NCBI GenBank assembly: GCA_017454355.1 | Contig: JAFTDD010000074.1 | Span: forward strand, 1-35,954 | Direction: 5' to 3' | Source: Muribaculaceae bacterium | Lineage (GTDB): Bacteria; Bacteroidota; Bacteroidia; Bacteroidales; Muribaculaceae | DNA: 35,954 nt | Part shown: positions 3,386-34,578 of the stretch, in pieces | How positions within the stretch are numbered: position 1 is the stretch's first letter | How the letters are laid out: each line of letters opens with the position of its first letter | Program-made: the position numbers and the translations under genes | The notes under the pieces: model-generated | Told to the model about the DNA's origin: nothing | What the model saw: the letters and a program-made list of their open reading frames with translations, nothing else | Databases searched by the model: none

Positions 3386-3455
3386 TAGTCGTTAGTCGTT
3401 AGTCGTTAGAGGGGCCGGCGTCTGGGGGCGCGGCATGGGCAACCGGGGGGTAGTT
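3386..3455. repeat. GTTAGTC word array plus GC-rich module overlapping a gene end
   Basis: 3386-3410 is TAGTCG repeated as TAGTCGT units. It is followed by a GC-rich segment (about 3411-3444: GGCCGGCG...GCGCGGCATGG.CAACCG) that recurs after the same word array at 33840-33896. The module crosses the stop codon of the CNBD gene (3399-3401), so it encodes the end of that protein. Confidence 0.8.
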
Positions 3456-3881
3456 GATAGATGTGGGGGTCGGGGCGCGTTGGGCGAGAGTGGAGAGCAT
3501 ATTGAGGATGTTGAACATAAAGATGCGGTTGCTCTCGAGCATAGTGAGGAAGTGTCGCTTGGTCAGCAGCAGCAGTCCGCAGCCGTCACTGCCGGCGATG
3601 GCGTCAAAGGGGTAAACGTTGCTTGCGCCAAAGAGAAACTCCGGGCCGAGCACTGCCGGAGCCGCGATGTTGTAACGCTGGTCGCCGCCAGGCGTGGGGC
3701 GCGTGACGTCAAGGCTGCCGGAAACGATGAAGCGGACGTGGCTGCATCTGTCGCCATGGCTCACAGCCGTTTCGCCGGCTTTGAGTTTGACGAAGTGGAG
3801 CGGCAGTTTCTCGATTAGTTCGACAATCTGCTCCTTGGTGGCGCCTTGGAATAGCGGCAGTCGCGTTAACTGTTCGTACAT
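3399..3881 (-). CDS. CRP-like cyclic-nucleotide-binding domain protein lacking the HTH
   Basis: A 160-aa protein with a CNBD/cupin fold over residues 1-135, typical of the Bacteroidales Crp/Fnr family in its first part (PLFQGATKEQIVELIEKL, the long helix near FMFNILNMLSTLAQR). Family members are usually about 210-225 aa with a C-terminal winged HTH. Here similarity stops after STLAQR and is followed by about 30 Pro/Ala-rich residues. The last dozen or so are encoded by a repeat module also found at 33840-33896. The DNA-binding domain is therefore missing. It may still bind a ligand and act on the adjacent transporter through protein contacts, or it may be a decaying gene. It precedes the transporter by 16 bp. 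Confidence 0.8.
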   Translation of the reverse strand: MYEQLTRLPLFQGATKEQIVELIEKLPLHFVKLKAGETAVSHGDRCSHVRFIVSGSLDVTRPTPGGDQRYNIAAPAVLGPEFLFGASNVYPFDAIAGSDGCGLLLLTKRHFLTMLESNRIFMFNILNMLSTLAQRAPTPTSINYPPVAHAAPPDAGPSND

Positions 3882-3885
3882 TTTG

Positions 3886-4099
3886 TTAATTATCTCCCGT
3901 GAATTTACGTGAATTATCGTGAATAAATTTATTTCTCTCTCGAAAATTCACGAAAATTTTCGAAAAATATATTATCTCGTAAATTTTCGTAAATCCACGT
4001 AAATTCAACCTCTTGTTCTCTAAAATGCTCTTGTTCTCTTGTTTAAATAAAATATTTACGGGAATTCACGAAAATTCACGGGAGATTAATTTTCGAGAA
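3886..4099. repeat. CGTGAATT word arrays as a large inverted repeat
   Basis: The gap between hisS and the CNBD gene is built from the word CGTGAATT and its variants. The left arm (3886-3930, TCTCCCGTGAATTTACGTGA...) is complementary to the right arm (about 4045-4090, ending TTCACGGGAGATTAAT). Between them is a second, inner set of AAAATTTTCG / CGTAAATT words. The array continues past the hisS stop codon (4100-4102). Confidence 0.8.
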
Positions 4100-5473
4100 T
4101 TATCGGGAACTTTCGTGAGTATATTCGAGGAGGGCATTGGGGGAGAGGGTTGACTGCTCGCCGGTGTCCATGCGCTTGACGGTGACGGTGCCGTCGGCGA
4201 GTTCTTGTTCGCCGATGATTGCCACCATGGGGATGGCGCGGTCGTTGGCGTAGGACATCTGCTTCTTGAGTTTGACGGCGTCGGGGTAGAGTTCGGTGCT
4301 GATGCCGGCGGCTCGCAGCAGGCGCATGCACTCGAGGCTGCGGGCGGCCTCTTGCGGTCCAAAGTTGACGAACATCACCTTGACTGCGGCCGAGAGAGCG
4401 GTGGGGTAGAGGTCGAGTTGGTTGAGCACGTCATAGATGCGGTCGGCTCCGAAACTGATGCCCACGCCGGAGAGTCCCGGCATGCCGAAGACGCCTGTGA
4501 GGTTGTCATATCGTCCTCCGCCGGTGATGCTGCCCATCTCGACGTCGCGCGCTTTGACCTCGAGGATGGTGCCGGTGTAGTAGTTAAGGCCGCGCGCGAG
4601 CGAGACGTCGAGTTCGACGGTGGCCCGCAGAGGCATCGCGGCGGCGTGGCCGAGTACGAAACGCAGTTCCTCGAGTCCCTTGGCACCGTCGGGGTTGTCG
4701 CCCACGAGACCCTCGAGGCTGGCGAGTTTCTCGTCATTGGTGCCGGCCAGGGTGAGCAGCGGCTGCAGAGCGTTGACGGCGTCGGGTGCAAGTCCCTTGT
4801 CGAGAAGTTCGGCGTTGACTTTGTCGAGACCCATTTTGTCGATTTTGTCGATAGCCACTGTGATGTCGACCACGCGGTCGGGTTCGCCGATGACGGCGGC
4901 GATGGCGGTGAGGATTTTGCGGTTGTTCACCTTGATGGTGACGTTGATGCCCAGTCGCGCCATGACGTCGTCGATGAGGCTGACGAGTTCCACCTCGTTG
5001 AGCAGCGAGTCGCTGCCCACCACGTCGGCGTCACACTGGTAGAACTCGCGGTAACGTCCGCGCTGTGGCCTGTCGGCGCGCCAGACGGGCTGCAGTTGAT
5101 AGCGCTTGAAGGGCAGAGTGATGGCCTCGCGGTGCTGGACGACGAAGCGCGCGAAGGGCACCGTGAGGTCGTATCTGAGGCCCTTCTCGCTCAAGTGGCG
5201 CGTCAGGTGGAGGGCGTCGCGCGCGGCGAGCAGGTCGTCGGGCGCGTCCTTGAGGTAGTCACCGCTATTGAGGATTTTGAACAGCAGTTTGTCGCCCTCG
5301 TCGCCATACTTGCCCATGAGTGTGGAGAGGTTCTCCATCGCCGGGGTCTCGATTTGGCTGTAGCCGTATAGTTCAAACACCTCGCGGATTGTGTTGAAGA
5401 TATAGTTGCGTCGCGCCATCTCTTGGGGAGTGAAGTCGCGCGTGCCTTTAGGAATGCCGGGTTTCTGTGCCAT
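4100..5473 (-). CDS. hisS: Histidine--tRNA ligase
   Basis: Class II aminoacyl-tRNA synthetase of 457 aa that charges tRNA-His. The start is the ATG at 5473 ([14 protein letters not shown]), where family similarity begins; an in-frame ATG 37 codons upstream falls in repeat DNA and is rejected. Motif 2 is visible at [19 protein letters not shown] (132-150), the histidine-binding stretch as [11 protein letters not shown], and motif 3 as [13 protein letters not shown]. The C-terminal anticodon-binding domain contains [10 protein letters not shown]. The last residues, after LLEYTHE, are encoded by the word-array DNA that fills the downstream gap, so the C-terminal tail appears to be of repeat origin. 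Confidence 0.96.
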
Positions 5474-5921
5474 AATATGAAAGGTTGACCGTTGACCGAT
5501 AAGGGCGGCCACGAGGTGGCCGCACACCGAACGTTGTCCTCCCCCCCGCCCCCTCCTACAGGAGGGGAAGTATAGGAAAGGCATTGTTACGGCCGTTGTC
5601 GTTAGTGATAATATTAATAATAATGTGCAAAGTTACAAAAAATGGTTGGAATGGTTGGTAAAAAATGTCGATTGATTGTAAAAAAAACAAAATTGGGCAA
5701 ATAAATTTTTCTATTTCAAAAATAAGTGATAATTTCGCCGCCGAAACTGAAGGTTGAGCGTTGAGAGGTTGAGCCATTTGCTGACGCAAATGGGAATAAA
5801 TGTAAAACAAAACTATTATCCCCGAGCGCGATAGCGCGAGGCTCAACACCTCAACCCTCAACCCCTAAACGACTAACGACTACTATTGTTTAACTTTTAA
5901 AAGATTGTTTTAAGTATTATT
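5474..5921. repeat. hisS leader and stacked intergenic repeats
   Basis: About 450 bp without a gene. Next to hisS are GGTTGACC words (5482-5498) and a GC-rich module (5503-5533) that recurs inside the kinase gene at 7564-7594. Then comes a CCTCC...GGAGGGG hairpin sequence (about 5535-5566), similar to one at 11934-11967. After the promoter box at 5628 is AT-rich DNA, then an inverted pair of GGTTGAG word arrays (5750-5775 and 5840-5865) enclosing smaller palindromes, and finally CGACTAACGACTA words up to 5884. The 101-codon ORF across this stretch has no recognisable features. Confidence 0.75.
5628..5635 (-). promoter_or_regulatory. Candidate -7 promoter box (TAACTTTG) for hisS
   Basis: Read on the minus strand the box is TAACTTTG, matching the Bacteroidetes consensus TAnnTTTG. 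No clear TTTG was found 19-20 bp upstream. If used, the hisS leader would be about 150 nt and would contain the CCTCC/GGAGG hairpin. Confidence 0.5.
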
Positions 5922-6509
5922 ATGAAGAAGTTTTTATTGCTCATTGCCGCTGTGGCATCGATGACGTTTGTGTCGTGTGACAACAAGCCCAAGGCCGAGG
6001 AAGAGGCTCAGGCCGAGTATCAGTTCAACGCTGACGAGTTCAGCGCCAACCTGCTTGCCGCTCAGGACAGCGCGAGCACCGTGGGCGTAATTGACCAGGC
6101 CAAGGCCGTTGCCGACAGCCTGTTCGCCGCCGGTAAGACCGAGGCCGCCAAGAGCGTTCTCGAGAAGGTGAAGGAAGTGATTGAGAAGAACAAGGAGGCT
6201 CTTGACGCCAAGGTTCCGGGCATCAGCGCCGGTCTTAGCAGCGCCGTTGACGCTGTGGCCGAGAAGTTCGGTGCCGCCAAGGAGGCTGTTGCCGAGGGTG
6301 CTGACAGCCTGAAGGCAGCCGGTGCAGAGGCCGTGGAGGCTGCCGCCGACAAGGCTGCTGAGGTGAAGGACGCCGCCGCCGCGGCTGCCTCCGATGCTGC
6401 CGACAAGGCCAAGGAGGCTGCTCAAGGTGCTGTTGACGCCGCCAAGGACAAGGCCGCTGAGGGTGTCGACAAGGCTGCCGACGCCGCCAAGGGCTTGCTG
6501 AAGAAGTAA
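5922..6509 (+). CDS. Ala/Lys-rich amphipathic-helix lipoprotein (LEA-like)
   Basis: A 195-aa predicted lipoprotein. The signal peptide MKKFLLLIAAVASMTFVSC ends in a Bacteroidetes-type lipobox with the acylated Cys at residue 19. The mature part is almost wholly helical and very rich in Ala, Lys, Glu and Asp. From about residue 120 on it consists of degenerate repeats of the type AADKAAEVKDAA / VDAAKDKAAEG, as in LEA-like and apolipoprotein-like proteins. It probably lies along the inner leaflet of the outer membrane or in the periplasm. Its role is unknown; LEA-like proteins are often linked to stress or desiccation. It is transcribed in the same direction as the kinase downstream, but hairpin repeats separate them. 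Confidence 0.8.
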   Translation: MKKFLLLIAAVASMTFVSCDNKPKAEEEAQAEYQFNADEFSANLLAAQDSASTVGVIDQAKAVADSLFAAGKTEAAKSVLEKVKEVIEKNKEALDAKVPGISAGLSSAVDAVAEKFGAAKEAVAEGADSLKAAGAEAVEAAADKAAEVKDAAAAAASDAADKAKEAAQGAVDAAKDKAAEGVDKAADAAKGLLKK

Positions 6510-6514
6510 GACAA

Positions 6515-6569
6515 GGGGACGGTTCTTCTGTTTCACCGCGAAGCGGCTGACAACAGAAGAACCGTCCCC
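6515..6569. repeat. GGGGACGGTTCTTCTGTTT hairpin, copy 1
   Basis: Inverted repeat with arms GGGGACGGTTCTTCTGTT and its complement around a short GC-rich loop. It begins 5 bp after the lipoprotein stop codon and could act as its transcription terminator, although no T-run follows. The same palindrome occurs at 6606-6658 and 12389-12442. Confidence 0.85.
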
Positions 6570-6605
6570 ATTCAGAGGCTTAACTTCTATCCGCGCATCG
6601 CGCGC

Positions 6606-6700
6606 GGGGACGGTTCTTCTGTTTCAGCGACAAGTCGTGAAACAGAAGAACCGTCCCCTTGTTTCAGCGACAAGTCGTGAAACAGAAGAACCGTCCCCTT
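6606..6700. repeat. GGGGACGGTTCTTCTGTTT hairpin, copy 2, with a 40-bp tandem duplication
   Basis: 6606-6658 is a near-perfect hairpin of the same family. Its right half plus 2 bp (6621-6660) is then repeated exactly at 6661-6700, a perfect 40-bp tandem duplication. The outer edge of the duplicate supplies the CTTG that serves as candidate -33 element for the kinase promoter. Confidence 0.9.
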
Positions 6701-6728
6701 GTCGTTTCAAATATTTTCATTACTTTTG
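6698..6728 (+). promoter_or_regulatory. Candidate promoter of the kinase gene, leaderless
   Basis: CTTG at 6698-6701 and TACTTTTG at 6721-6728 match the Bacteroidetes -33/-7 pattern with a 19-bp spacer. Only 5 bp separate the -7 box from the ATG at 6734, so transcription would begin at or very near the start codon. The -33 part comes from the repeat duplicated at 6661-6700. Confidence 0.6.
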
Positions 6729-6733
6729 TGGTG

Positions 6734-8083
6734 ATGAATGAAACAGAGCAAAATAGAGCGACTCCGCCGTCGGGGTATCTTGGCGCGGAGGCAGTGACGG
6801 TGGAGACAACGTTTGACGAGGTCACCGAGGTGCACACGTCGGCCTATTTTACCGTGTGGCGCGCGCGTCGTTATGGCCGCTGGTGGGCCCTCAAGGGATT
6901 AAATGATGAGTATGCCGACAGTGCATTGCACCGTCGGATGCTGCGCAAGGAGTTTGAGGTGCTGATGCAGATGCAGCACGCGGGTGTGGTGCAGGCCTAC
7001 GGCATGGAAACGGTGGGGGAGTGTGGCGCCTGCATTGTGATGGAATGGGTGGACGGCGTGACGCTCGACCGCTGGATAGAGGGCGAGCCGGAGAGCGCTG
7101 CACGAGTGGACGTGCTCGATAAGTTGCTGGACGCGGTGGCATACGTGCACCGCACCGGTGTGGTTCACCGCGACCTCAAGCCCACCAACGTGATGGTGAC
7201 CGGCGGCGGCAGCGGCGTGAAACTCATTGACTTCAGCCTGGCCGACGGCGGAGCCTACGCGATGCTCAAGCAAGCCGGCGGCACTGCCGGCTATATCGCT
7301 CCGGAGCAACTTGAGGGCGGCGCGCCAGATGTTCGCAACGACGTCTATTCGCTGGGCCGCATCATTGAGGAGATGAGGCTGGGCGGAGCGTATAGCGGCA
7401 TTGTCAAGCGGTGCCTGACGCCTCAGGCTGGGCGGTATGCCACGGTGGACGAACTGCGGCGGACTGTGGCTGCTGCCGGAAAACGCCAGTGGCTGAGGAC
7501 GGCGTTTCTTGCGGTGGCTGTGGCGCTGCTTGCCGGCGGAGCGTGGTTACTGTCGCCCGGCGAGGGCGGACACGAGGTGGCCGCACACCGGACGGAGACT
7601 GTCGACACCTTGATTGAGCCGGCGGTTGAGCCTGTTGTTGGGCAGACGGTTGTGCCTGTTGTTGGGCAGACGGTTGAGCGACAGATAGATCCCACGGCCG
7701 ACCAACCTGATAAATCCCGTACTCCCACCGCTGAAAGGGCAGATGGAGGCCAAGCGGCACGCGGCAAGGCTATCGCCGATTGCATCGCCTTGATGGATTC
7801 TATCGCAAAACAGTTTTGCTTTGAAACCAAGTTGCGGGAAATCACAGATACTCCGACAGGGGACCGCTTGAACGACAATGGTCGCGCGATAGACTTATTT
7901 GACGAGGCAACGAAGCAACTCCGAGTGTCCAACGCACAATATCTGGAAGGCTTGAAAGGCAAATTGAGCGATGATGATTACGCGCAAGTGTCGGCTGCGT
8001 TGCAGGCACACTATTCCGAGATTGTCGGCGGTTGGGCAACTGCGGCCACTGCTGCCATTAACCACTTTAGCGCCATCGAGTGA
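6734..8083 (+). CDS. Membrane Ser/Thr protein kinase with periplasmic C-terminal region
   Basis: A 449-aa Hanks-type kinase. The glycine loop is degenerate, but K54 (WALKGL), the catalytic loop HRDLKPTN (145-152), the metal-binding D167 (in DFS rather than DFG) and APE (189-191) are present, so activity is likely. The kinase domain (about 25-245) is followed by one membrane helix (254-273) and a C-terminal region of about 175 aa expected outside the cytoplasm. The linker contains two copies of an 8-residue unit (PVVGQTVV/E) from a 24-bp DNA tandem repeat. Next to it is a stretch encoded by a 31-bp module shared with the hisS leader. An in-frame ATG at 6659 lies in a repeat and is rejected. 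The partner gene follows 56 bp downstream. Confidence 0.88.
   Translation: MNETEQNRATPPSGYLGAEAVTVETTFDEVTEVHTSAYFTVWRARRYGRWWALKGLNDEYADSALHRRMLRKEFEVLMQMQHAGVVQAYGMETVGECGACIVMEWVDGVTLDRWIEGEPESAARVDVLDKLLDAVAYVHRTGVVHRDLKPTNVMVTGGGSGVKLIDFSLADGGAYAMLKQAGGTAGYIAPEQLEGGAPDVRNDVYSLGRIIEEMRLGGAYSGIVKRCLTPQAGRYATVDELRRTVAAAGKRQWLRTAFLAVAVALLAGGAWLLSPGEGGHEVAAHRTETVDTLIEPAVEPVVGQTVVPVVGQTVERQIDPTADQPDKSRTPTAERADGGQAARGKAIADCIALMDSIAKQFCFETKLREITDTPTGDRLNDNGRAIDLFDEATKQLRVSNAQYLEGLKGKLSDDDYAQVSAALQAHYSEIVGGWATAATAAINHFSAIE
7564..7594 (+). repeat. 31-bp intergenic module captured inside the kinase gene
   Basis: Matches 5503-5533 in the hisS leader with two mismatches (core GAGGTGGCCGCACACCG). In the kinase it is translated in frame as part of the juxtamembrane linker, around [10 protein letters not shown] 24-bp tandem duplication follows at 7631-7678. 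Confidence 0.8.
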
Positions 8084-8139
8084 CGGGATTTAATGGAGTT
8101 GTGATAATTCCCGAATAATGTTTTACATTCTAAATTCAC

Positions 8140-9118: not shown

Positions 9119-9119
9119 C

Positions 9120-10409
9120 CTACTCCGGAAGGTCTTCACGAGCAACGGTGGCGGCACGGGACAGGATGACTATAAGCACGGCGTTCACATCGCCCACATC
9201 GACGTTGCCGTCGCCGTTCACGTCGTACACGTTGCCGCCACCCGCCAGAATATCGGCGAGCACAGCGTTCACGTCGCCCACATCAAGCGCGTTGTCACCG
9301 TTCACGTCGGGAAACTCTGGGTCAACCCCGTCACGGATATCGTCAAGGATAAAAGCGAAATCTCTCCACTGTGCTGCGGTGCGATACATCTCCGCCGTCC
9401 CCACAGGCACATGCAGCCGACACGTCCATTCCGACACACCACTAAATACACCTCCTCCCATCGCCAACTTCGTGACATCTTTTATCTTCGAATAGATATC
9501 GGTCAAACCAGTGCAGCCACCGAACGCATAGTATTCGATTCCAGTGACCGAGTTGGGTATGGTCACGCTCGTCAAGCCACTGCAATTCCAGAACGCTTCG
9601 CCGCCGATTGAGGTGACCGAGTTGGGGATGGTCACGTTCGTCAAGTTCGACATGCCTTTGCACAAACAACGGGCCACATACTCCAACTCATTGCCTATGA
9701 TGAGGGTATTTATTGAAGTTCCGCTAAATGGTGGAAATCGACTATTGAGATTGACGCAACGCGCATTCCACGTCAAGGTTGTCAAGTTGCTGCAGCCATC
9801 GAACACATGGTTGCCGAATGAGGTGACCGAGTTGGGGATGGTCATGCTCGTCAAGCCGCTGCAATTATAGAATGCCTGGTCGCCGATTGAGGTAACCGAG
9901 TCGGGGATATTCATGCTCGTCAAGCCACTGCAACCATAGAACGTAAACCCGCTGATTGAGGTGACCGAGTTGGGGATGCTTATGCTCGTCAGACCATAGC
10001 AGTAACTGAACGCTTCGTAACCGATTGAGGAGACCGAATTGCCGATGGTCACGCTCGTCAAGCCAGTGCAACCCTCGAACGCTCGGTATTCGATTGATGT
10101 GACAGAGTCGGGGATGGTCACACTCGTCAAACTGGTGCAACCCCAGAACGCTTCTTCGCCAATTGAGGTGACAGTGTATGTCGTGCCGTCATAGTAGACA
10201 GAAGGGGGTATGGTCAGTGCAATGGTAATATCACCGCCGAGAGCGGTGTAGCTAGGGTCTCTGTTTTGCTCATACGTCACCGTGACCGAAGTGTCGTTGT
10301 TTCGATTGTAGCACAGGCCGCCGACCTTGAAGTCGTAGGCCGCGGCGGTCACCGGCAGCATCGCCGCCAGCAACAATACAAATTTTTTAATAAGCTGTCT
10401 CATGATCAA
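9120..10409 (-). CDS. BspA-like LRR surface protein with dockerin-like C-terminus
   Basis: A 429-aa secreted protein. A signal peptide (residues 1-24, ending PVTAAA) is followed by about nine LRR_5/BspA-type repeats between about 80 and 340. The unit is 23 residues (consensus SGLTSVTIPNSVTSIGxxAF), seen in the DNA as a 69-bp imperfect repeat. The C-terminus has two dockerin-like calcium loops, DVNGDNALDVGD (368-379) and DVNGDGNVDVGD (396-407). BspA-type proteins mediate adhesion or coaggregation. In gut Bacteroidales the dockerin-like pair occurs on many secreted proteins without known cohesins. There is no type IX sorting domain. Start may be Met1 or Met3. Confidence 0.85.
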   Translation of the reverse strand: MIMRQLIKKFVLLLAAMLPVTAAAYDFKVGGLCYNRNNDTSVTVTYEQNRDPSYTALGGDITIALTIPPSVYYDGTTYTVTSIGEEAFWGCTSLTSVTIPDSVTSIEYRAFEGCTGLTSVTIGNSVSSIGYEAFSYCYGLTSISIPNSVTSISGFTFYGCSGLTSMNIPDSVTSIGDQAFYNCSGLTSMTIPNSVTSFGNHVFDGCSNLTTLTWNARCVNLNSRFPPFSGTSINTLIIGNELEYVARCLCKGMSNLTNVTIPNSVTSIGGEAFWNCSGLTSVTIPNSVTGIEYYAFGGCTGLTDIYSKIKDVTKLAMGGGVFSGVSEWTCRLHVPVGTAEMYRTAAQWRDFAFILDDIRDGVDPEFPDVNGDNALDVGDVNAVLADILAGGGNVYDVNGDGNVDVGDVNAVLIVILSRAATVAREDLPE

Positions 10410-10707
10410 TTATAATTTTTTACAAGATAAAATCCGTTTAAGAAGCAAAATATCAATACCGTGAAAAAGTAGTTACCAAGCCCGGGCCGTGAATGCGGCA
10501 TTTATTTTGGCACTCAAATTTCTTAAGTATAAATAATTGAATCTTAACAAAGTATATTGTTATAGGTGTAGGGGCAGAATTTATTCTGCCCGTTTGCCGC
10601 AGCTGCGGGCAGAATAAATTCTGCCCCTACAAGCCGGTTTAATAGCAAATTAGATGCTTTAGAAACTTTGATTTTGCATTAAACCGAGTTCCTATGTCAG
10701 ACAAGAG
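10410..10707. repeat. MITE-like element with an internal perfect hairpin
   Basis: No gene. An element bounded by imperfect terminal inverted repeats related to TTCAAGTTTCTAAAGTA lies at about 10513-10671. Inside it, 10568-10592 and 10606-10630 are perfect 25-bp inverted arms of the GTAGGGGCAGAATTTATTC family around a 13-nt loop. The rest is AT-rich DNA without recognisable signals. Confidence 0.75.
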
Positions 10708-12129: not shown

Positions 12130-12388
12130 TTTTTTTTGATCTCCCGTGAATTTCCGTGAACAAGAAATTATTATACGGAGGTTCACGATAATTCATGGGA
12201 GATAGAATATTAACGATAGGAAAGCCAGGGTGTCTGAGCGGCGGGACGAACCCGCGGCGGTTGACGGTGCAAAGGTAGGCAAAGTTCGTGGCACTGGAGT
12301 GGTACATTATGGTACATTTGCCGATGGTTACATGTGGATTGGCAAGTTTTACGGTTTTTACGTGAGATTGTTATTGACGAGAAAACAC

Positions 12389-12442
12389 GGGGACGGTTCT
12401 TCTGTTTCAGCCGCTTCGCGGTGAAACAGAAGAACCGTCCCC
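12389..12442. repeat. GGGGACGGTTCTTCTGTTT hairpin, copy 3
   Basis: A near-perfect inverted repeat of the family seen at 6515-6569 and 6606-6658, with arms of about 21 bp and a GC-rich loop (CCGCTTCGCGG). It is isolated from genes on both sides. Confidence 0.88.
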
Positions 12443-14585: not shown

Positions 14586-15049
14586 AGTTTTTATTCATTT
14601 AATTGTTATTACAATTGCAAAATTACAAACTTTTTTCCTTTTGACCAACAATGAACATACTTTACTTCCTCTTGAAATTTTTGTGTTTTTATTTCCCGTG
14701 AATTTTCGTGAATATTTCCTCTCGTCTATTTGTGTCTATTCTCGTCATTATAATCTCCCGTGAATTATCGTGAATTATCGTAAGTATTTTATTCAAGCTT
14801 CTAAAGTAGGTTAATCGATGATTTACAACGCTATAAGGTTGAGGCAAGCCTCGTCCTCCGTTGGTAAATTAAATAAAAACCTCAGTCGTCCAAACCCACT
14901 GAAGCGGGTTGTGGCAGTTCAAAATCTGATTTCAATAATTTTTACTTTAGAAACTTGAATTTTAATTTTTTAGAGGAAACAACGAGTTGCGGATTTTAGG
15001 TAAATCTCAAGATCGGGATTATTTACTGATTGCCATAATAATAAATAAT
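14586..15049. repeat. Intergenic region with word arrays and a MITE-like element
   Basis: About 460 bp with no gene. After the toxin-antitoxin promoter come three arrays: CGTGAATT words (14692-14715), GTCTATT words (14721-14747) and CGTGAATT words again (14752-14782). Then follows a 168-bp element at 14792-14959 with 17-bp terminal inverted repeats (TTCAAGCTTCTAAAGTA and TACTTTAGAAACTTGAA, one mismatch). It contains a CCCACTGAAGCGGGTTGTGG hairpin and no ORF. Confidence 0.75.
14601..14648 (-). promoter_or_regulatory. Promoter and possible operator of the toxin-antitoxin operon
   Basis: On the minus strand TTG (14646-14648) and TAATTTTG (14618-14625) are 20 bp apart. Just after the -7 box is an imperfect palindrome of 14/16 positions, AATTGTTATTACAATT (14601-14616), in the place expected for repression by the antitoxin-toxin complex. 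Confidence 0.6.
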
Positions 15050-16186: not shown

Positions 16187-16564
16187 TGCTCCATAAATGA
16201 GTCCACTGCAAAAAGAAAATAGTTTCATACCGCAAGTTCTTTTTTAACAATAGTTCGGTAAATTTTAGAGGTTAGCGTCTATTCACGTCTATGACAACGT
16301 CAATTCACGTCTAAAATAAGAAAATTGACGAAAATAGACGTTGTTATTGACGAAAATAGACGCGAAACAATTATTTATAGCACTTTTTCATTTTTTTACC
16401 GAAGTATTGTTTTAACATAAATATCCATTAATATTCATTAATCGTAGTCGCAGATTTGATATTTTGAATAAATATTAATGGATAATTAATGGATATTCAT
16501 GTTAAAAAAACATCAGGTGCCCGCCCACCTTGAACGGTAATTCAGGGGAGAAAACGGGTGCCGG
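16187..16564. repeat. Nested inverted-repeat elements
   Basis: About 380 bp with no gene. The element 16246-16411 (166 bp) has 17-bp terminal inverted repeats AACAATAGTTCGGTAAA and TTTACCGAAGTATTGTT (one mismatch). Inside are two 39-nt complementary arms made of GTCTATT/GTCAATT words (16275-16313 and 16325-16363). Directly outside, overlapping its right end, a second palindrome has arms of ATCCATTAAT/ATTCATTAAT words (16410-16442 and 16474-16507). The remaining bases before the proS stop codon hold nothing recognisable. Confidence 0.8.
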
Positions 16565-18046
16565 TTAGTAGTTGCGGGCGAAGATGACGCGGCGCGTGCT
16601 GGGGGCTCCGGTGAGGATGCAGTGGCCGGCCTCGGGCTCGCTGTCCATGGGGATGCAGCGGATGGTGGCCTTGGTGAGTTCCTTGATTTTCTCCTCGGTC
16701 TCGGTGGTGCCGTCCCAGTGGGCGAGCACGAAGCCGCCTTGCTCGATGCGGGCCACGAAGTCGTCCCATGTGTCGACCTTGAACGTCAGCTCCTCGCGGT
16801 GGCGCAGCGCCTTGTCGTAGAGGCTCTGCTGGATGTCGTCGAGCAGCCTCTTGACGTGATCCTCGATGCCCTCGAGTGGAACGATTTCCTTCTCGAGGGT
16901 GTCGCGGCGCATGAGTTCGACGGTGCCGTTCTCGATGTCGCGCGGTCCGAGCACGAGGCGCACGGGGACACCCTTGAGTTCGTAGTCGGCAAACTTGAAG
17001 CCGGCTCGCTTGTTGTCGGCCTTGTCATACTTGACGCTGATGCCCTTGGATAGCAGTCGCAACACGATGGGATGGACGACGGCGTCGATGGTCTCGAGTT
17101 GGTCCGCCTTCTTGTAGATGGGGATGATGACCACCTGGATGGGGGCCAGGCGCGGCGGCAGTACGAGGCCGTTGTCGTCGCTGTGGGTCATGATCAGGGC
17201 GCCCATCAGGCGTGTAGAGACGCCCCATGAGGTTGCCCAGACGTATTCGAGTTGGTTCTCCTTGTTGATGAACTTGACGTCGAATGCTTTGGCGAAGTTT
17301 TGGCCGAGGAAGTGGCTGGTGCCGCTCTGCAGGGCCTTGCCGTCTTGCATCATGGCCTCGATGGTGTAGGTCTCGACGGCTCCGGCAAATCGCTCGTTGG
17401 CGGTCTTGACGCCCTTGATGACGGGCATCGCCATGAACTGCTCGGCAAAGTCGGCGTAGACGTTGAGCATCTCGATGGCTTTGGCCTGCGCCTCGTCGCT
17501 GGTGGCGTGGGCTGTGTGTCCCTCTTGCCAGAGGAACTCGGCCGTGCGCAGGAACATGCGTGTGCGCATCTCCCATCGCATCACGTTTGCCCACTGGTTG
17601 ACGAGCAGTGGCAGGTCGCGGTAACTGGAGATCCAGTTGCGATAGGTGTTCCAGATGATGGTCTCGCTGGTGGGACGGATGATGAGTTCCTCCTCGAGGC
17701 GTGCCTCGGGGTCGACGACGACGCCGTTGCCGTCGGGGTCGTTCTTGAGGCGGTAGTGGGTGACCACGGCGCACTCCTTTGCGAAGCCCTCGACGTGCTC
17801 GGCCTCGCGGCAGAGGAACGATTTGGGGATGAGCAGGGGGAAGTAGGCGTTCTGGACGCCGGTGAGTTTGAAGCTGTCGTCAAGTTCGCGCTGCATTTTT
17901 TCCCAGATGGCGTAGCCGTAGGGCTTGATTACCATGCAGCCGCGCACGGCTGATTGCTCGGCCAGGTCGGCCTTGACGACGAGTTCGTTGTACCACTGCG
18001 AGTAGTTGGTGGCTCGCTTGGTGAGGTCTTTTAATTCGATTGCCAT
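16565..18046 (-). CDS. proS: Proline--tRNA ligase, archaeal/eukaryal-type
   Basis: A 493-aa class II synthetase that charges tRNA-Pro. The short form without the bacterial editing insertion and with a C-terminal extension ending in an aromatic residue (RRVIFARNY) is the ProS type 3 used by Bacteroidetes. Visible features include [14 protein letters not shown] near the start, RPTSETIIW and RTREFLWQE-like [16 protein letters not shown], and [15 protein letters not shown]. The start at 18046 ([19 protein letters not shown]) is that of the family. An array of GGAGCAAT/AAGAG words occupies the upstream gap. Confidence 0.96.
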
Positions 18047-18062
18047 ATTGTTTATTGTGAAA

Positions 18063-18170
18063 TATAAGACATAAGAGAAATAGGAGCAATGGGAGCGATA
18101 AGAGCAATGGGAGCAATAGGGGAAATTGGGGAAGACCCTCTCAACTTCTCAACTCTCAACCTCTCAACGT
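18063..18170. repeat. GGAGCAAT and CTCAAC word arrays
   Basis: Two adjacent arrays in the gap between proS and the OmpA-like gene: 18063-18132 repeats GGAGCAATGG / ATAAGAG variants, and 18135-18166 repeats CTCTCAAC / TTCTCAAC. The second array ends 4 bp before the OmpA-like stop codon. Confidence 0.8.
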
Positions 18171-18840: not shown

Positions 18841-19036
18841 TCAAGTTTCTAAAGTCGGTTCGCGTCAATTTCCGTCAATAACAACGTCAATTCCCGTCTA
18901 TCTTTATAATTTTTGGACAAAAGAAACAAAAGAACATAATTTCTAAAAAATTGACGCAAATAGACGTTGTCATTGACGAAATAGACGCGAACCAATTAGC
19001 GACACAGAAAGGGAATGGCCTACTTTAGAAACTTAG
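18841..19036. repeat. MITE-like element with GTCAATT/GTCTATT hairpin
   Basis: Outer inverted ends TCAAGTTTCTAAAGTC and TACTTTAGAAACTTAGA match the ends of the elements at 10513, 14792 and 28771. Inside, 18857-18901 and 18949-18993 are complementary 45-nt arms made of the words CGTCAATT and CGTCTATT. No ORF. The element lies between rimM and the OmpA-like gene. Confidence 0.85.
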
Positions 19037-19583: not shown

Positions 19584-19724
19584 CGTTTCGGGCAAATGAT
19601 TTTGCAATATTTTAAACACAAATTACCATAAATTATCTATGAATTTTTAGACAAGAGAACATGAGATTGTTTTCTAAATAAATTATGAATAATTTGTGGA
19701 AATTTATGTTTAAAATTTGCTTTA

Positions 19725-20321
19725 TTACTTTTTCTTTTTCTTTTTGCCCTGCTGGCCCGCAGGCGTGGGGGCGGCCTGGAACTCGTGGAGGGCGTGGGTA
19801 TCAGTGTCGAGCCGAATCACGCCGTGGGAGTAGTGGGCGAGGTCCTTGAAAATCTTGCGGTCGTCAACCACCTCGTTGCTGATTTGGAAGATGAGTTTCT
19901 TCATGTGGTTGGCGATGAGCATAACCAGCGCGTCGCGCTCCTCTCCCTCGGGATACTCGGCCGCGCGCGCGATCATGTGCTCAATGAGTTTGCCGTAATG
20001 GCGATAGGCGATAGGCTCCTTCTTGTAGGCCACCGGCAGCGGCTTGGTGTTGAGGTTGTCGGGCTGGACGATTTCGTAGGGGAAGTCGATGTCGAGTTGG
20101 AAGTTGCTCATGATTGCCAGATGGTCCCACAGTTTGTGGCGCCAGTTGGCTTCCTGCTTGATTTGCGGCAAGAGCAACGCCATGGTATCGACGATGGAGC
20201 AAGCGCAGTGGGTGCGCTCGTCGCGGTCCTCGAGTTGGACGCAGTAGTCAACCATCTGCTGCACATTGCGGCCATACTCTGGCAACACCAGTTTCTTGAG
20301 TTGAGAGTTATAGATTAGCAT
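19725..20321 (-). CDS. DUF4290 family protein
   Basis: A 198-aa cytoplasmic, helical protein of the Bacteroidetes-specific DUF4290 family. It is recognised from the start MLIYNSQLKKLVLPEYGRN and from the central KPLPVAYKKEPIAYRHYGK. Function unknown. The C-terminus ends in a run of Lys (GKKKKKK) after a Pro/Ala linker. It lies between rimM and tsaB in the same direction, so it may belong to a translation-related transcription unit. Confidence 0.88.
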   Translation of the reverse strand: MLIYNSQLKKLVLPEYGRNVQQMVDYCVQLEDRDERTHCACSIVDTMALLLPQIKQEANWRHKLWDHLAIMSNFQLDIDFPYEIVQPDNLNTKPLPVAYKKEPIAYRHYGKLIEHMIARAAEYPEGEERDALVMLIANHMKKLIFQISNEVVDDRKIFKDLAHYSHGVIRLDTDTHALHEFQAAPTPAGQQGKKKKKK

Positions 20322-20440
20322 TATTTCAATTCATAATTCATAATTCATCATTCATAATTGTTGGTGTCTCTGCAAGTTGCCTCCTTCGAGCATTCATAAT
20401 TCATAATTGTTGCTGTCTCTGCAAGTTGCCTCCTTCGAGC
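20322..20440. repeat. AATTCAT word array and tandem duplication of the tsaB 3' end
   Basis: 20327-20348 repeats AATTCATAATTCAT. Then a 42-bp segment occurs twice, at 20350-20391 and 20399-20440, with one mismatch and a 49-bp period. The second copy contains the last 13 codons of tsaB and its stop; the first is a non-coding duplicate just downstream. Confidence 0.88.
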
Positions 20441-22824: not shown

Positions 22825-22833
22825 TAAATGGAA

Positions 22834-22910
22834 ATCGATAAATCGAATGTTCGATTGTTCGAATGCTCGATTGCTCGAATAATTGAGAAACCGAGCATTC
22901 GATTAATCGT

Positions 22911-24708: not shown

Positions 24709-24755
24709 GTAAAAAAGTACGAGGTACGAAGTACAAAGTGCGAAGTTTTTTCACC

Positions 24756-26912: not shown

Positions 26913-27111
26913 AAAAATATCTTTCGTCTATTTCAGTCTGTCCTTTTCACGTAAAATCAGTAAAATGATTATTTACAACATTTTGTACAAGACTTCGTCT
27001 TGCAATACAAAACAATTATTTGCGAAAAACGATTTACGAGGATTCACGATAAATATAAAGAACGATAAAAATAGACGTATATAGACGTAAATGGACGAGA
27101 GGTTGCACTTT
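26904..27111. repeat. Intergenic word array between bcp and the DPP-IV gene
   Basis: 27030-27101 is made of ACGATTTACG / ATAGACGTA / TCACGATAAA words (the GTCTATT and CGTGAATT families mixed). The part nearer the peptidase start carries single GTCTATTTC and CACGTAAAATC words. No gene or promoter box recognised. Confidence 0.65.
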
Positions 27112-27567
27112 TTAGTCGTCGGCGAGTTGGAGGATTTGAGAGGCGTGGTCTTTGGTGTTGACCTTGTCGATGATGTGGGTGACGATGCCTTGCTCGTTGA
27201 TGATGAAGGTGGTGCGCACTGTGCCCATATAGGTGCGGCCGGCCATCTTCTTTTCTCTCCAAACGCCAAAGGCTTGGTTGAGCGAGGTGTCCTCGTCGGC
27301 GATGAGCGGGAATGGCAGTGAGTGCTTGGCGGCGAACTTGACATGCGAGGCTGCACTGTCGCGGCTGACGCCCAGTAGGGCGAAGCCGGCGGCTTGCAGG
27401 CGGCCGTAGCCCTCGGCAAGGCTGCAGGCCTGGGCGGTACACCCGGGCGTGTTGTCCTTGGGATAGAAATAGATGATTAACTTGTGGCCGGCAAAGTCGG
27501 CGGCATGGATTTCGTTACCCTCGGCGTCGCGGCCGAGCAATTCGGGAATGTGGTCTCCAATGTTCAT
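27112..27567 (-). CDS. bcp: Thioredoxin-dependent thiol peroxidase (Bcp/PrxQ)
   Basis: A 151-aa peroxiredoxin that reduces hydroperoxides using thioredoxin. The peroxidatic Cys43 is in NTPGCTAQAC and the resolving Cys48 lies five residues on, as in PrxQ enzymes. The conserved Arg is in VWREKKMAGRTYMGTVRTTF. Length and start (MNIGDHIPELLGRDAEGN) are normal. It precedes the symporter in reverse order with an AATTACT array in the gap. Confidence 0.94.
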   Translation of the reverse strand: MNIGDHIPELLGRDAEGNEIHAADFAGHKLIIYFYPKDNTPGCTAQACSLAEGYGRLQAAGFALLGVSRDSAASHVKFAAKHSLPFPLIADEDTSLNQAFGVWREKKMAGRTYMGTVRTTFIINEQGIVTHIIDKVNTKDHASQILQLADD

Positions 27568-27570
27568 AAT

Positions 27571-27594
27571 ACCAATTACTAATTACTAATTACT
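27571..27594. repeat. AATTACT word array crossing the symporter stop codon
   Basis: Three copies of AATTACT fill the gap between bcp and the symporter and include the symporter stop (27586-27588) plus its last two codons (Ser-Asn). Confidence 0.85.
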
Positions 27595-28749: not shown

Positions 28750-28889
28750 GGCGTTATGGATTTCAGGAAGTTAAGTTTCTATAGCAGATAAATTGATAGT
28801 TATGAGAAATGTAGGGGCAGAATTTATTTTTATCATGAATATCAATCACTTTTACATCAGAAACTTGAGTTAGGAACTCACGGTGTTGA
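28750..28889. repeat. Short MITE-like element upstream of the symporter
   Basis: TTAAGTTTCTATAGCAG (28771-28787) and TTACATCAGAAACTTGAG (28852-28869) are imperfect inverted ends of the TTCAAGTTTCTAAAGTA family. Inside is one arm of the GTAGGGGCAGAATTTATT palindrome (28811-28828). It is the most degenerate of the four copies. Confidence 0.6.
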
Positions 28890-31874: not shown

Positions 31875-32995
31875 TATTTCTTGATGAGGATTGTGGTGTG
31901 TACGGCCATGTCGAATAGCACGATGCGCGCCGAGGCGTTGCCGCGGATGTCGCGTGTGGCCTCGTTGAACAGTGTCAGCAGTTGCTCCACATTGCCGGCG
32001 TTGATAAACGGCGCAAAGCGCGTGGAAAACTGCTCCTCTTGGGCGGTGAGGTAGTTCAGGTCGGGCATGTGCAGGTTGTAGACAAAGTTTTCGCGCACTT
32101 GCCTGGCGGCATAGGCCAGGAAGCGGCAGGCCTTCTCACGCTTGAAGTCGGCCACGCTCTCGCTCCACGCCTTGAGTCCCGGCAGGTCGCGCAAGTAGGC
32201 TTGACGCATGAGGGTGACAAAGCGGTCGTGAAACTCAACGTTCTCGCCCTTGGCATCGAGCAGGTGGAGTGCCGCGGTGACGTTGCCGTCGGCCGTTGCG
32301 GCCAGGGCGAGAGCATCGCGCCGGTCGATGCCCGCGGTGGTCTCGAGCACGGCAGCCACTTCGTCGAGCGTGGGGCGGGTGAGTTCGAGGCGCTGGGTGC
32401 GCGAGAAGATAGTGGGCAGGATTGCCTGAGCGTCGTCGCTGACGAGGATAAACTTGCAGTCGTCGTAGGGCTCCTCGATGAGTTTGAGCAACTTGTTGGC
32501 GGCATCATCGCGCAACTTCTCGGGCAGCCACATGATGAGCACCTTATATTTGCTGACGTAGGCGCTCAACGTCATTCGGTTGAGGATTGCCTCGCTCTCT
32601 TTGACAAAGATGCGCGGCTGGGAGTTGTCGTTTTTCAGGATTGAGAGCCAGGCTTCGTAGTCTTCGACGGGGTGCTCGGTGAGAAATTCGCGCCACTGCG
32701 GCAGGTAGTCGGCACAGGTCGAGGCATCGTCCTTCTTGAGGTAGGGGAAAGAGAATGTGGTGTCGGTGTGGTTGAACGATTGGTGTTGCCGGCACGAGGG
32801 GCATTGTCCGCACGGCTCGCCCTGAGGAGTGCGGTTAGTGCAGTGGAGATATTGGGTGGCGGCGCGTGCCAGAGCGAGTTTGGGCACACCCGGCGCGCCG
32901 TGTAGCAGCAGTGCGTGTGGCAGTCGGTCGGCATCAATCATGTCGCGCAGTCGAGCCACGGCCTGCCTGTTGCCGATGACGTCACTGAATTTCAT
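31874..32995 (-). CDS. holB: DNA polymerase III delta' subunit
   Basis: A 373-aa clamp-loader subunit. AAA+ fold with a degenerate Walker A (HGAPGVPKLALA, 32-43), as usual for the non-hydrolysing delta'. A four-Cys zinc module (C52, C62, C65, C68) is complete. The sensor-1-like region near SRTQRLEL is present. It starts at MKFSDVIGNRQAVARL, 5 bp after the lptB stop, and its stop codon overlaps the AddB-like start, so lptB-holB-addB form one operon. Confidence 0.93.
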   Translation of the reverse strand: MKFSDVIGNRQAVARLRDMIDADRLPHALLLHGAPGVPKLALARAATQYLHCTNRTPQGEPCGQCPSCRQHQSFNHTDTTFSFPYLKKDDASTCADYLPQWREFLTEHPVEDYEAWLSILKNDNSQPRIFVKESEAILNRMTLSAYVSKYKVLIMWLPEKLRDDAANKLLKLIEEPYDDCKFILVSDDAQAILPTIFSRTQRLELTRPTLDEVAAVLETTAGIDRRDALALAATADGNVTAALHLLDAKGENVEFHDRFVTLMRQAYLRDLPGLKAWSESVADFKREKACRFLAYAARQVRENFVYNLHMPDLNYLTAQEEQFSTRFAPFINAGNVEQLLTLFNEATRDIRGNASARIVLFDMAVHTTILIKK

Positions 32996-33000
32996 TAGAA

Positions 33001-33831
33001 TTAAAAGTCGAAGTTTTTGCGTCGGAACACGAAGTTATGTCCCAGATATTTGTCGCGCACCACTGGGTTGTCGGCCAGCACTTCGCTATTGTCGTGGAAG
33101 AGGATTTTGCCCTCAAACAGGAGGTAACTGCGGTCGGTGATGCTCAGTGTCTCGGGCGCGTTGTGGTCAGTGATAAGGATGCCGATGTTCTGCTGTTTGA
33201 GGCGGTAGACGATGCTCTGAATGTCTTCCACGGCGATGGGGTCAACGCCGGCAAAAGGCTCGTCGAGCATTATAAAGCGTGGGTTGATTGCCAGACAGCG
33301 CGCGATTTCGGTGCGTCGCCGCTCGCCGCCGCTGAGGCGGTTGCCCAGATTGTGGCGCACCTTCTGGAGGTGCAGTTCGCTGATGAGTTGCTCGAGGCGG
33401 TCGCGCTGATACTCGGGCGTGGTGTCGGTCATCTCAAGGATGGTGCGCAGGTTGTCCTCGACGCTTAGGGTGCGGAAGACCGACGCCTCCTGCGGCAGAT
33501 AGCCGATGCCGAGTTTTGCGCGCTTATAGACGGGCAGTCCGGTGATGTCGATGTCGTTGAGAAACACGCGTCCGGCATTGGGCCTGACCAATCCGGTGGT
33601 CATATAGAACGTGGTTGTCTTGCCGGCGCCGTTGGGTCCCAGCAGTCCAACGATTTCTCCCTGGCGCATGTTGATTGACACGTGGTTGACGACGGTGCGC
33701 TGCCGATAACGCTTCACCAGGTCTTGAGTGCTGAGCACGAGTGTGCCTTCCTCGCCACTCTGGTGCAGCCGGCGCGCCACGTCGTCAAAGTCGGGGCCGT
33801 CTTGCCGTTTCCAAGGCCACTTGAAGTTCAT
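33001..33831 (-). CDS. lptB: LPS export ABC transporter ATP-binding protein
   Basis: A 276-aa ATPase of the Lpt bridge that powers lipopolysaccharide transport to the outer membrane. Walker A GPNGAGKTT (65-73), Q-loop YLPQEASVF (111-119), signature LSGGE (166-170), Walker B with D190-E191, and FAGVDP typical of LptB. Most LptB proteins are about 240-250 aa and start near VLSTQDLVKRY. Here about 31 extra residues (MNFKWPWKRQDG...) precede this point, and no internal ATG replaces them; only a GTG at codon 32 could. It heads an operon with holB. Confidence 0.94.
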   Translation of the reverse strand: MNFKWPWKRQDGPDFDDVARRLHQSGEEGTLVLSTQDLVKRYRQRTVVNHVSINMRQGEIVGLLGPNGAGKTTTFYMTTGLVRPNAGRVFLNDIDITGLPVYKRAKLGIGYLPQEASVFRTLSVEDNLRTILEMTDTTPEYQRDRLEQLISELHLQKVRHNLGNRLSGGERRRTEIARCLAINPRFIMLDEPFAGVDPIAVEDIQSIVYRLKQQNIGILITDHNAPETLSITDRSYLLFEGKILFHDNSEVLADNPVVRDKYLGHNFVFRRKNFDF

Positions 33832-33839
33832 CTGTTTTG

Positions 33840-33927
33840 TCGTTAGTCGTTAGTCGATAGATGGCCGGCGCGTGGGCGCGCGGCATGGACAACCGCTACG
33901 TGCTACATGCTACGTGCTACATGCTGA
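33840..33927. repeat. TAGTCGT array, GC-rich module and GCTACGT array
   Basis: 33840-33860 repeats TCGTTAG. 33862-33896 is the GC-rich module also found at 3411-3444. 33895-33927 repeats GCTACGT/GCTACAT four times. The last array runs across the udk stop codon (33917-33919) and supplies the codons for the final Ser-Met. Confidence 0.85.
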
Positions 33928-34534
33928 TGTTGAGTTTGCCCTTGATATAATCGGTGATGAGGTTGATGGCCACCTCGTTGTGGCCGCCCTCAGGCACGAT
34001 GATGTTGGCGTGACGCTTGGCCGGCTCGATGTGCAGCATGTGCATGGGTTTGAGCACACGCTGATAGCGCTCGATGACCTCTTCGGCTGTGCGTCCGCGC
34101 TCAACGACGTCGCGCGCGATGACACGGATGAGGCGGTCGTCGGCGTCGGCGTCGACAAACACTTTAATGTCCATCATTTTGCGGAGTCTGGGGTCGCTCA
34201 ACACGAGGATGCCCTCGATAACGACGACGTCGTGCGGGTCCATGTGGACGGTTTCGGGCAGTCGCGAGCAGGTGAGGTAACTATAGGTCGGCATCTCGAT
34301 GGGCTGGCCTTTCTTGAGCATCTTCAGGTGCTCGAGCAGCAGGTCCCAGTCAAAGGCCTCGGGCTCGTCGAAGTTGATGTTCTGGCGCTGCTCCACGGGC
34401 ACGTGGCTGGAGTCCTTGTAGTAACTGTCTTGCGAGATGATGCCAACCTCGCCCTGGGGCAGTCGCTCCATAATTTTGCGCACCACGGTTGTCTTGCCCG
34501 AGCCGGTGCCGCCCGCAATACCGATGATTAGCAT
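33917..34534 (-). CDS. udk: Uridine kinase
   Basis: A 205-aa P-loop kinase that phosphorylates uridine and cytidine in pyrimidine salvage. Walker A is GIAGGTGSGKTT (5-16). The family features SQDSYYKD and NFDEPEAFDWDLL are present, followed by the lid region with RDVVERGRTAEEVIERY. Start at MLIIGIAGGTGSG. The gene follows the small HTH gene by 33 bp of GTTAGTC words. The C-terminal residues derive from an array. Confidence 0.95.
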   Translation of the reverse strand: MLIIGIAGGTGSGKTTVVRKIMERLPQGEVGIISQDSYYKDSSHVPVEQRQNINFDEPEAFDWDLLLEHLKMLKKGQPIEMPTYSYLTCSRLPETVHMDPHDVVVIEGILVLSDPRLRKMMDIKVFVDADADDRLIRVIARDVVERGRTAEEVIERYQRVLKPMHMLHIEPAKRHANIIVPEGGHNEVAINLITDYIKGKLNISM

Positions 34535-34538
34535 GATT

Positions 34539-34578
34539 GTTAGTCGTTAGTCGTTAGACATTGGACGTTAGTCGTTGG
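34539..34578. repeat. GTTAGTC word array crossing the stop codon of the small HTH gene
   Basis: GTTAGTCGTTAGTC units interrupted by ACATTGGAC fill the gap between udk and the HTH gene. The HTH stop codon (34568-34570) and its final Asn-Asp codons lie inside the array. Confidence 0.85.

What the first reader, a model, noticed from the sequence alone, without database searches (positions are those of the whole stretch)
3386..34578. Gap-specific short-word arrays fill nearly every intergenic region
Each gap carries a quasi-tandem array of a 6-12 bp word, and the word changes from gap to gap: GTTAGTC (3386, 33840, 34539), GGTTGAG (1402, 5750, 5840), CGTGAATT (3886, 12139, 14692), GTCTATT/GTCAATT (16275, 18857, 27060), AATTACT (27571), AATTCAT (20327), ATTCGAATGCTCG (22834), GGAGCAATGG (18063), GCTACGT (33895), GTACGAAGTAC (24717), ATCCATTAAT (16410). 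Many form complementary arms. Copies drift by point changes that keep the period, as if templated locally. No standard feature class explains this, and it suggests an unrecognised mechanism generating or spreading short words in gaps.
Basis: seen in the sequence. Interest (0 to 1): 0.75.

Follow-up and report, generated by a model that had tools for sequence, protein, structure and literature searches.

The report
Short repeat arrays between bacterial genes
Many gaps between genes in this bacterium are built from short 7- to 11-letter words repeated in a row, often as the two matching arms of a hairpin; such repeats are known elsewhere, but here related species keep a hairpin in several gaps while swapping the word, which shows unusually fast rewriting of gene spacers.

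Summary
Real, but overstated. In 630 kb of this genome 105 of 305 gaps carry tandem arrays (0.5 expected by shuffling; 3 of 305 coding stretches), at periods 7-11; in the window 9 of 19 size-selected gaps, not "nearly every". The words are not gap-specific: a limited repertoire is reused across the genome and shared with its sister species, while other congeners mostly use other words.

Two known kinds of repeat explain most of it: (1) 7-9-bp STRR/long-SSR-type arrays against start and stop codons; (2) 10-11-bp words, at least partly internal repeats of MITE-like palindromic elements.

New: many arrays are inverted arms of intercistronic hairpins. Arms pair within a gap more than between gaps, in co-directional and convergent but not divergent gaps. 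In three of five gaps compared across congeners the word was replaced in both arms together; in the other two covariation was absent or weak. Slippage and replacement of whole arrays are visible. Any function is probably REP-like, at the RNA level; how words disperse is unknown.

The parts
1403..1433 (-). GGTTTAG/GGTTGAG array, reads CTCAACC/CTAAACC before the start codon at 1399
3385..3409 (-). heptamer array, sense CTAACGA x3.6, directly before the start codon at 3382
   Evidence: 100% matches
3893..4120 (.). CGTGAATT / CGTAAATT 10-bp arrays in inverted arms; gap 3882-4099 folds at -62 kcal/mol, z -4.9
5751..5870 (.). inverted pair GGTTGAG (5751-5773) / CTCAACC (5842-5870) around two short hairpins; dispersed family
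   Evidence: other copies of the family
12139..12205 (.). CTCCCGTGAATT / AATTCATGGGAG inverted 10-bp words
   Evidence: by eye
14697..14781 (.). CGTGAATT and GTCTATT 10-bp arrays
16248..16409 (.). MITE-like element, terminal inverted repeats CAATAGTTCGGTAA / TTACCGAAGTATTG, arms made of GTCTATT/GTCAATT words
16416..16500 (.). ATCCATTAAT 10/11-bp inverted arrays
18059..18168 (-). 9-bp array of GAGCAATGG type (18059-18133) next to a CTCTCAAC array (18138-18168), before the start codon at 18046
18843..19036 (.). MITE-like element, inverted ends AAGTTTCTAAAGT / ACTTTAGAAACTT, carrying a GTCAATT/GTCTATT hairpin
19620..19710 (.). CATAAATTAT inverted 10/11-bp words; gap 19584-19724 folds with z -4.9
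20328..20408 (-). AATTATG heptamer arrays before the start codon at 20321, inside a 49-bp duplication
22832..22880 (-). TCGAATGC/TCGAACA 8-bp array between aspS and the nif3-like gene; identical in sister G016
24715..24746 (-). GTACTTC heptamer array upstream of aspS
27031..27097 (.). GATTCACGAG and CGTCTATT 10-bp arrays
27570..27594 (-). AATTAGT heptamer array directly before the start codon at 27567
33836..33925 (-). stop-side GTAGCAT/GTAGCAC array (33895-33925, overlaps the stop codon) and start-side CTAACGA array (33836-33860) with a GC palindrome between
34535..34576 (-). CTAACGA heptamer array filling the gap before the start codon at 34534

Best explanation
The gaps hold two layers of known kinds of repeat. 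Layer 1: STRR/long-SSR-type arrays of 7, 8 or 9 bp that sit against start and stop codons. They grow and shrink by whole units (shown; slippage inferred as the cause). Each lineage has a small word repertoire that recurs in many gaps (shown); that words are copied or re-inserted from gap to gap is inferred. Layer 2: MITE-like palindromic elements whose arms contain 10-bp words (shown for one family with two kinds of flanking ends; inferred for the rest). Many layer-1 arrays occur as inverted pairs that make a hairpin between a stop codon and the next gene. In several gaps the sequence turns over while pairing is kept, so what persists there is the palindrome, not the word. I infer that (a) arms are kept alike by selection on the RNA hairpin and/or by template switching within the imperfect palindrome, and (b) the hairpin acts like REP elements at 3' ends and in operons (transcript 3'-end protection, tuning of a neighbouring gene) or is merely tolerated there. 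The word itself is probably not a recognition site.
For: Excess and period spectrum; replicate in G016. Reused repertoire: 31 canonical words shared with G016, none with the samples of 16 other congeners. Genome-wide in 31 genomes of the genus: CTAWCGA x3 only in G000 and G016; AACTTAA x3 in 8 and CTAAWGC x3 in 5, none of them G000 or G016; AATTRTG x3 36 overlapping sites in G000, 29 in G016, 1-7 in six others. Whole-unit changes of 14 and 28 bp between sisters at L022 14710 and L009 6680. Arms pair below -30 kcal/mol in 83 of 505 co-directional gaps (0.051 with partners from other gaps), 24 of 62 convergent (0.052), 1 of 83 divergent (0.010). Orthologous gaps, own left arm with own right arm versus right arms of other species: -34.9 versus -19.8 (aspS-nif3, 9 species, permutation p 5e-5) and -24.8 versus -14.9 (nif3-zinc-ribbon gene, 6 species, p 0.005); -23.5 versus -11.8 (nrdD-nrdG, 18 species, 0 of 20,000 permutations). 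U-tracts in 2 of 103 hairpins. MITE-like family with inverted ends.
Against: At two other orthologous gaps (either side of a GH130 gene, 7 species each) arm covariation is absent (-11.2 versus -12.4) or weak (-13.0 versus -9.9), and upstream four species keep an unstructured, array-free spacer, so the hairpin is dispensable there. The window's own genome shows the weakest within-gap pairing: 25 of 174 below -25 versus 0.077, against 47 of 241 versus 0.058 in G016 and 17 of 66 versus 0.061 in congeners. Stems flush with the stop codon also appear in between-gap controls, so placement adds nothing. 72 of 126 period-7 arrays have no partner arm. Arrays themselves also occur in 9 of 39 divergent gaps. 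Permutation tests ignore relatedness. Mirrored unit order in 26 of 59 hairpin gaps is biased because those gaps were chosen for strong pairing. No expression data.
Confidence: 0.6

Rival explanations
1. All arrays are arms or remnants of mobile palindromic elements (BIME/MITE-like) that insert between genes; the repeats are just their arms and the elements have no host function.
For: Several arrays are attached to dispersed GC palindromes (by eye; families); presence/absence between sisters, e.g. 493 versus 45 bp at L028 2166 and a 190-bp CTCAACAT array missing in G016; a 10-bp word family lies in MITE-like elements; a spacer that is array-free in four species carries arrays of two different kinds in three others; PF01797 (Y1_Tnp) has 10 matches in G000, the most of 25 genomes (one is below the cut-off and two look like pieces of one gene).
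Against: 59 of 112 array gaps share no dispersed 14-mer family outside the array; arms co-vary in three orthologous gaps, which simple insertion does not need; array growth in place is visible (L300 versus L299); target duplications were not examined.
Confidence: 0.25
2. Neutral slippage: 7-nt slippage is intrinsically favoured and arrays simply survive in spacers, with no dispersal and no function.
For: Heptamers dominate, as in other genomes (PMC4679880, citing Mrazek 2007); whole-unit length changes between sisters; arrays nearly absent from coding stretches (3 of 305).
Against: Independent local slippage does not give the same few words in dozens of gaps, lineage-specific repertoires or gap-specific complementary arms.
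Confidence: 0.1
3. The words are binding sites for a translation or RNA-binding regulator (S1, Csp or Csr type), as proposed for TAACTGA in Beggiatoaceae.
For: Arrays abut start codons; CTAACGA is in the sense orientation in all 16 gene-end-proximal arrays of that word (from the counts); Bacteroidetes lack detectable Shine-Dalgarno sites (PMC3155529, abstract).
Against: Several unrelated words serve the same gap in congeners; array-free orthologues exist; several words occur both before starts and, reverse-complemented, after stops.
Confidence: 0.08
4. A dedicated templated writer (for example a reverse transcriptase with a short template) adds words at gaps.
For: Only the defined step sizes 7-11 and lineage-wide words.
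Against: Periods from 7 to 11 coexist in one genome; no candidate enzyme or template was sought; simpler processes are visible.
Confidence: 0.03

Closest known systems
STRR / long simple sequence repeats; heptamers of Xanthomonas and Nostoc (PMC4692102; abstract, passages and section 13 seen)
   Same: 7-bp units, intergenic, mostly within 0-50 bp of genes, on one strand before starts and the other after stops, can overlap stop codons, some inverted pairs, length varies between sister species.
   Different: That paper treats one G-rich word type per genome; here dozens of mostly non-G-rich words of 7, 8 and 9 bp in one genome, and word replacement with arm covariation at orthologous gaps.
TAACTGA direct repeats of Beggiatoaceae (PMC4679880; abstract and sections 3, 8, 10, 23 read)
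   Same: Heptamer arrays directly before start codons; patchy distribution including five Bacteroidetes, among them Paludibacter.
   Different: Single word, 169 direct sets and one indirect repeat; TAACTGA is not among this sample's array words.
REP / BIME elements (PMC3733652, PMC12306157; passages seen)
   Same: Hairpins predominantly between co-directional and convergent genes; some right after stop codons.
   Different: REPs are 20-40-bp palindromes, many tagged GTAG or CGTC; here the stems are tandem words that change between species.
MITE with internal tandem repeats, BrickBuilt of Porphyromonas gingivalis (PMC4596501; abstract and passages seen)
   Same: Intergenic element with inverted ends and tandem subrepeats in a Bacteroidetes genome.
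   Different: BrickBuilt repeats a 23-nt unit head to tail; here 10-bp words sit in opposed arms.
Borg tandem repeats (PMC9879509; abstract and outline seen)
   Same: Pervasive, fast-evolving tandem repeats, also intergenic.
   Different: The abstract says those arise independently; here words are shared across the genome and nearly confined to spacers.

Membership tests
STRR / long SSR arrays | tandem units of 5-11 bp longer than chance, heptamers commonest | tested here: met
   periods 7-11, 54 gaps at period 7; G016
STRR / long SSR arrays | intergenic, near gene ends with consistent polarity | tested here: met
   3 of 305 coding controls; in families with at least 3 members 121 of 143 arrays agree with the majority outward orientation, 92.5 expected (230 gene-end-proximal arrays in all); AACGACT, AAGTACG and AATTCAC instead keep one sense orientation
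TAACTGA repeats | the word TAACTGA | tested here: not met
   0 of 152 arrays of the sample
REP/BIME | fixed 20-40-bp palindrome with GTAG or CGTC tag | tested here: not met
   stems are tandem words that differ between species
REP/BIME | between co-directional or convergent genes, rarely divergent | tested here: met
   hairpins: 0.164 and 0.387 versus 0.012
REP/BIME | partner RAYT (Y1_Tnp) transposase | tested here: inconclusive
   10 PF01797 matches in G000; no link to the arrays shown
MITE (GTCTATT/GTCAATT elements only) | terminal inverted repeats, dispersed, short | tested here: met
   33 core hits in the own sample (palindromes count on both strands), many with CAATA[GC]TTCGGTAA / TTACCGAA[CG]TATTG ends; window 16248-16409
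MITE (GTCTATT/GTCAATT elements only) | target site duplication and related transposase | not tested
   not examined
Intrinsic terminator | stem followed by a U-tract | tested here: not met
   >=5 U in 8 nt after the stem in 2 of 103 co-directional and 2 of 27 convergent hairpins
Phase-variation SSR | copy number switches expression of one gene | not testable with these tools
   no expression data

The most novel reading that the evidence does not exclude
Intercistronic hairpins in this lineage are rewritten in place: both arms are re-synthesised together from short words by repeated fold-back copying and 7-9-nt slippage, with a lineage-wide word pool. The result is a class of structural RNA elements whose fold persists at a gap while no base of the sequence does.
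Probability: 0.3. Interest if true: 0.75.

Novelty: new variant of a known kind. Interest (0 to 1): 0.58.

Why it matters
Short heptamer repeats have been reported from scattered bacteria without, to my knowledge, an agreed origin. This genus, with many sequenced species, shows word repertoires replaced between relatives and hairpin arms changing together, so the birth, spread and replacement of such arrays can be followed gap by gap. It also warns that what is conserved in a gap may be structure only, which sequence searches miss.

Tried and rejected
Rfam at gathering thresholds and ARAGORN found nothing in the window. Shuffled and coding controls rejected chance and local composition. Intrinsic terminators were rejected for lack of U-tracts. 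A precise stop-to-stem spacing, which I first took for a translation-coupling signature, was dropped because between-gap controls give the same stop-side median of 2 nt (start side 9 nt within gaps, 3 nt in the control). An all-frame-stop hypothesis was kept only as a minor effect: stop codons are in 0.85 of 26 stop-proximal words versus 0.54 shuffled, but 0.57 versus 0.43 over all 56 words. In 159 genomes of the order ACTAACR x3 matched in 7, but the reversed control pattern also matched in 4; the reversed control of AATTRTG matched in G000 (5) and G188 (9), so heptamer arrays of many words exist and single words are not special.

The automatic seed test between G000 and G016 miscounts arrays whose consensus is blurred (the identical window 22832 array scores zero copies), so I rely on the printed alignments.

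Five searches for intergenic short arrays (I saw the top 10-20 listed of up to 1,625 hits each) showed no paper on multi-word arrays with co-varying arms; PMC4679880 does describe TAACTGA sets in five Bacteroidetes and PMC4596501 a MITE with repeats in Porphyromonas. Only open PMC papers were searched. Mrazek 2007 is cited through PMC4679880; the name STRR and early cyanobacterial work are recalled.
Full report
What was tested. The window is contig 48 of a 2.7-Mb draft genome. I called genes with a small script in the window plus 40 further stretches of the same genome (630 kb, 423 genes) and examined the 305 gaps of 25-600 bp. Start calls are approximate and some window genes were missed, so seven of the window's 26 gaps fell outside the size range.

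The arrays are real. A lag-match score of 12 or more at a period of 5-13 occurs in 105 of 305 gaps, against 0.5 in 30 dinucleotide shuffles and 3 of 305 coding stretches. The periods are 7 (54 gaps), 8 (14), 9 (22), 10 (20) and 11 (4), with none at 5, 6, 12 or 13. In the window 9 of 19 gaps qualify. The sister genome G016 gives 96 of 416 gaps (1.4 expected), stretches of 16 other congeners 18 of 154 (1.6 expected). In other families of the order the trait is patchy: 28 of 49 gaps in G093, 6 of 9 in G070 and 6 of 11 in G151 (all three chosen because they carry one of the words, and read around those places), but 3 of 112 in stretches of thirteen other families (one 552-base stretch left out).

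The words are not gap-specific. The 152 arrays reduce to 81 canonical words; 25 of them recur and account for 96 arrays. G016 shares 31 words exactly; the congener samples share none. Genome-wide pattern searches in 31 genomes of the genus refine this: CTAWCGA x3 occurs only in G000 and G016, AACTTAA x3 in 8 genomes and CTAAWGC x3 in 5, none of them G000 or G016, while AATTRTG x3 has 36 overlapping sites in G000, 29 in G016 and 1-7 in six others. So repertoires are largely lineage-specific.

Two layers. Of period-10 arrays 60 of 67 have a complementary partner in the same gap. At least one family is a MITE-like element of about 160 bp with inverted ends (CAATA[GC]TTCGGTAA ... TTACCGAA[CG]TATTG) whose arms are made of GTCTATT/GTCAATT words; the window has one at 16248-16409, and the same arms between other inverted ends at 18843-19036. 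That the CGTGAATT and ATCCATTAAT words are also parts of such elements is inferred from their inverted layout. The 7-9-bp arrays are different: many abut start and stop codons, 121 of 143 follow the majority outward orientation of their family (92.5 expected), and they match the placement and polarity published for heptamers of Xanthomonas and Nostoc (PMC4692102, section 13 read).

Hairpins. Between the first and last part of a gap, pairing below -30 kcal/mol is found in 83 of 505 co-directional gaps (0.051 when partners are taken from other gaps of the same sample), 24 of 62 convergent gaps (0.052) and 1 of 83 divergent gaps (0.010). This is the distribution described for REP elements (PMC3733652, passages seen) and points to transcribed spacers. 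Arrays as such also occur in divergent gaps (9 of 39; co-directional 96 of 243, convergent 7 of 23). U-tracts are rare (2 of 103 co-directional, 2 of 27 convergent), so most are not intrinsic terminators. By sample the pairing excess is weakest in the window's own genome (25 of 174 below -25 versus 0.077; G016 47 of 241 versus 0.058; congeners 17 of 66 versus 0.061).

Turnover at orthologous gaps. Between G000 and G016, 56 of 305 gaps could be matched in the stretches held (flank identity median 92.5%), 10 of equal length, 23 with arrays. Differences include whole-unit changes (14 bp at L022 14710, 28 bp at L009 6680), a 190-bp array present in one species only (L009 13085), and different arrays or palindromes at the same site (L004 4862, L033 13038). 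Among 13 other congeners read at the aspS-nif3 gap (gene families checked), nine have a hairpin, eight of them with heptad arms (words such as GGCATTA, AAGTTTT, TTAGTTG, AGTCCCT), and four have a short gap without one. A left arm pairs far better with its own right arm than with those of other species (-34.9 versus -19.8 kcal/mol, permutation p 5e-5). The same holds for nif3 to the zinc-ribbon gene in the six of those nine species with a gap of 50 nt or more (p 0.005), and for nrdD-nrdG, where 24 gaps were recovered from 26 loci, 18 are at least 50 nt long, 10 of these pair below -20, and the diagonal is -23.5 versus -11.8. There the congeners show, by eye, at least six unrelated word families, and five have almost no gap. 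Two further gaps, either side of a GH130 gene, speak against a fixed structure. Upstream, four of seven species keep a similar unstructured spacer, three carry arrays of two different kinds instead (which state is older is inferred), and covariation is absent (-11.2 versus -12.4); downstream it is weak (-13.0 versus -9.9), with heptad growth in place visible in one species (L300 versus L299).

Reading. Unit-wise change is shown; replacement of arrays by other words is shown; the step that carries a word from gap to gap is not. Selection for an intercistronic RNA hairpin and fold-back copying within an imperfect palindrome would both keep arms alike, and the data do not separate them. The words themselves are unlikely to be recognised, because they differ freely at one gap. 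The kind of repeat is known; the breadth of the repertoire, the paired arms and the coordinated word replacement are the new part.

Scope. G093 is a Bacteroidia genome (3,686 bases of its stretch L109 are identical to the named record L159), and the genome search places it in the window's order; the genus was not named. RNA folding energies are a proxy for complementarity. Permutation tests treat related species as independent, which overstates significance.

Noticed in passing
window 6510-6702 and 12388-12442: Palindromic GGGGACGGTTCTTCTGTTTCA repeats, REP-like; the genome has 10 PF01797 (Y1_Tnp) matches, the most of 25 genomes searched.
   Followed up: partly
window 1443-1590, 10570-10635, 28810-28830: Dispersed GGGCAGAATAAATTCTGCCCCTAC palindrome; its k-mer family is in 11 of 305 gaps of the sample.
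   Followed up: no
window 120-430 and 35800-35954: Both contig ends carry the same GC-rich repeat (GGCGGGGGCGACAGCCCCCGT type) in opposite orientation; the assembly probably broke at a long dispersed repeat.
   Followed up: no
window 7614-7679: A 24-bp tandem repeat containing GTTGAGC lies inside a predicted protein-kinase gene (Pkinase).
   Followed up: no
L017 1117-1190 and L100 12606-12679: A GTACTTC-type heptad run seems to lie inside coding sequence near a protein start (signal-peptide-like by eye), in register between sister species with drifting words.
   Followed up: partly
L126-L205: A 24-base CTAACGA array occurs in many phyla (cyanobacteria, Acidobacteria, Gallionella, Bacteroidota and others); none of the 80 listed loci has it inside an ORF.
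   Followed up: partly
window 9790-10172: 69-bp repeats inside a BspA-type leucine-rich repeat gene (LRR_5).
   Followed up: no
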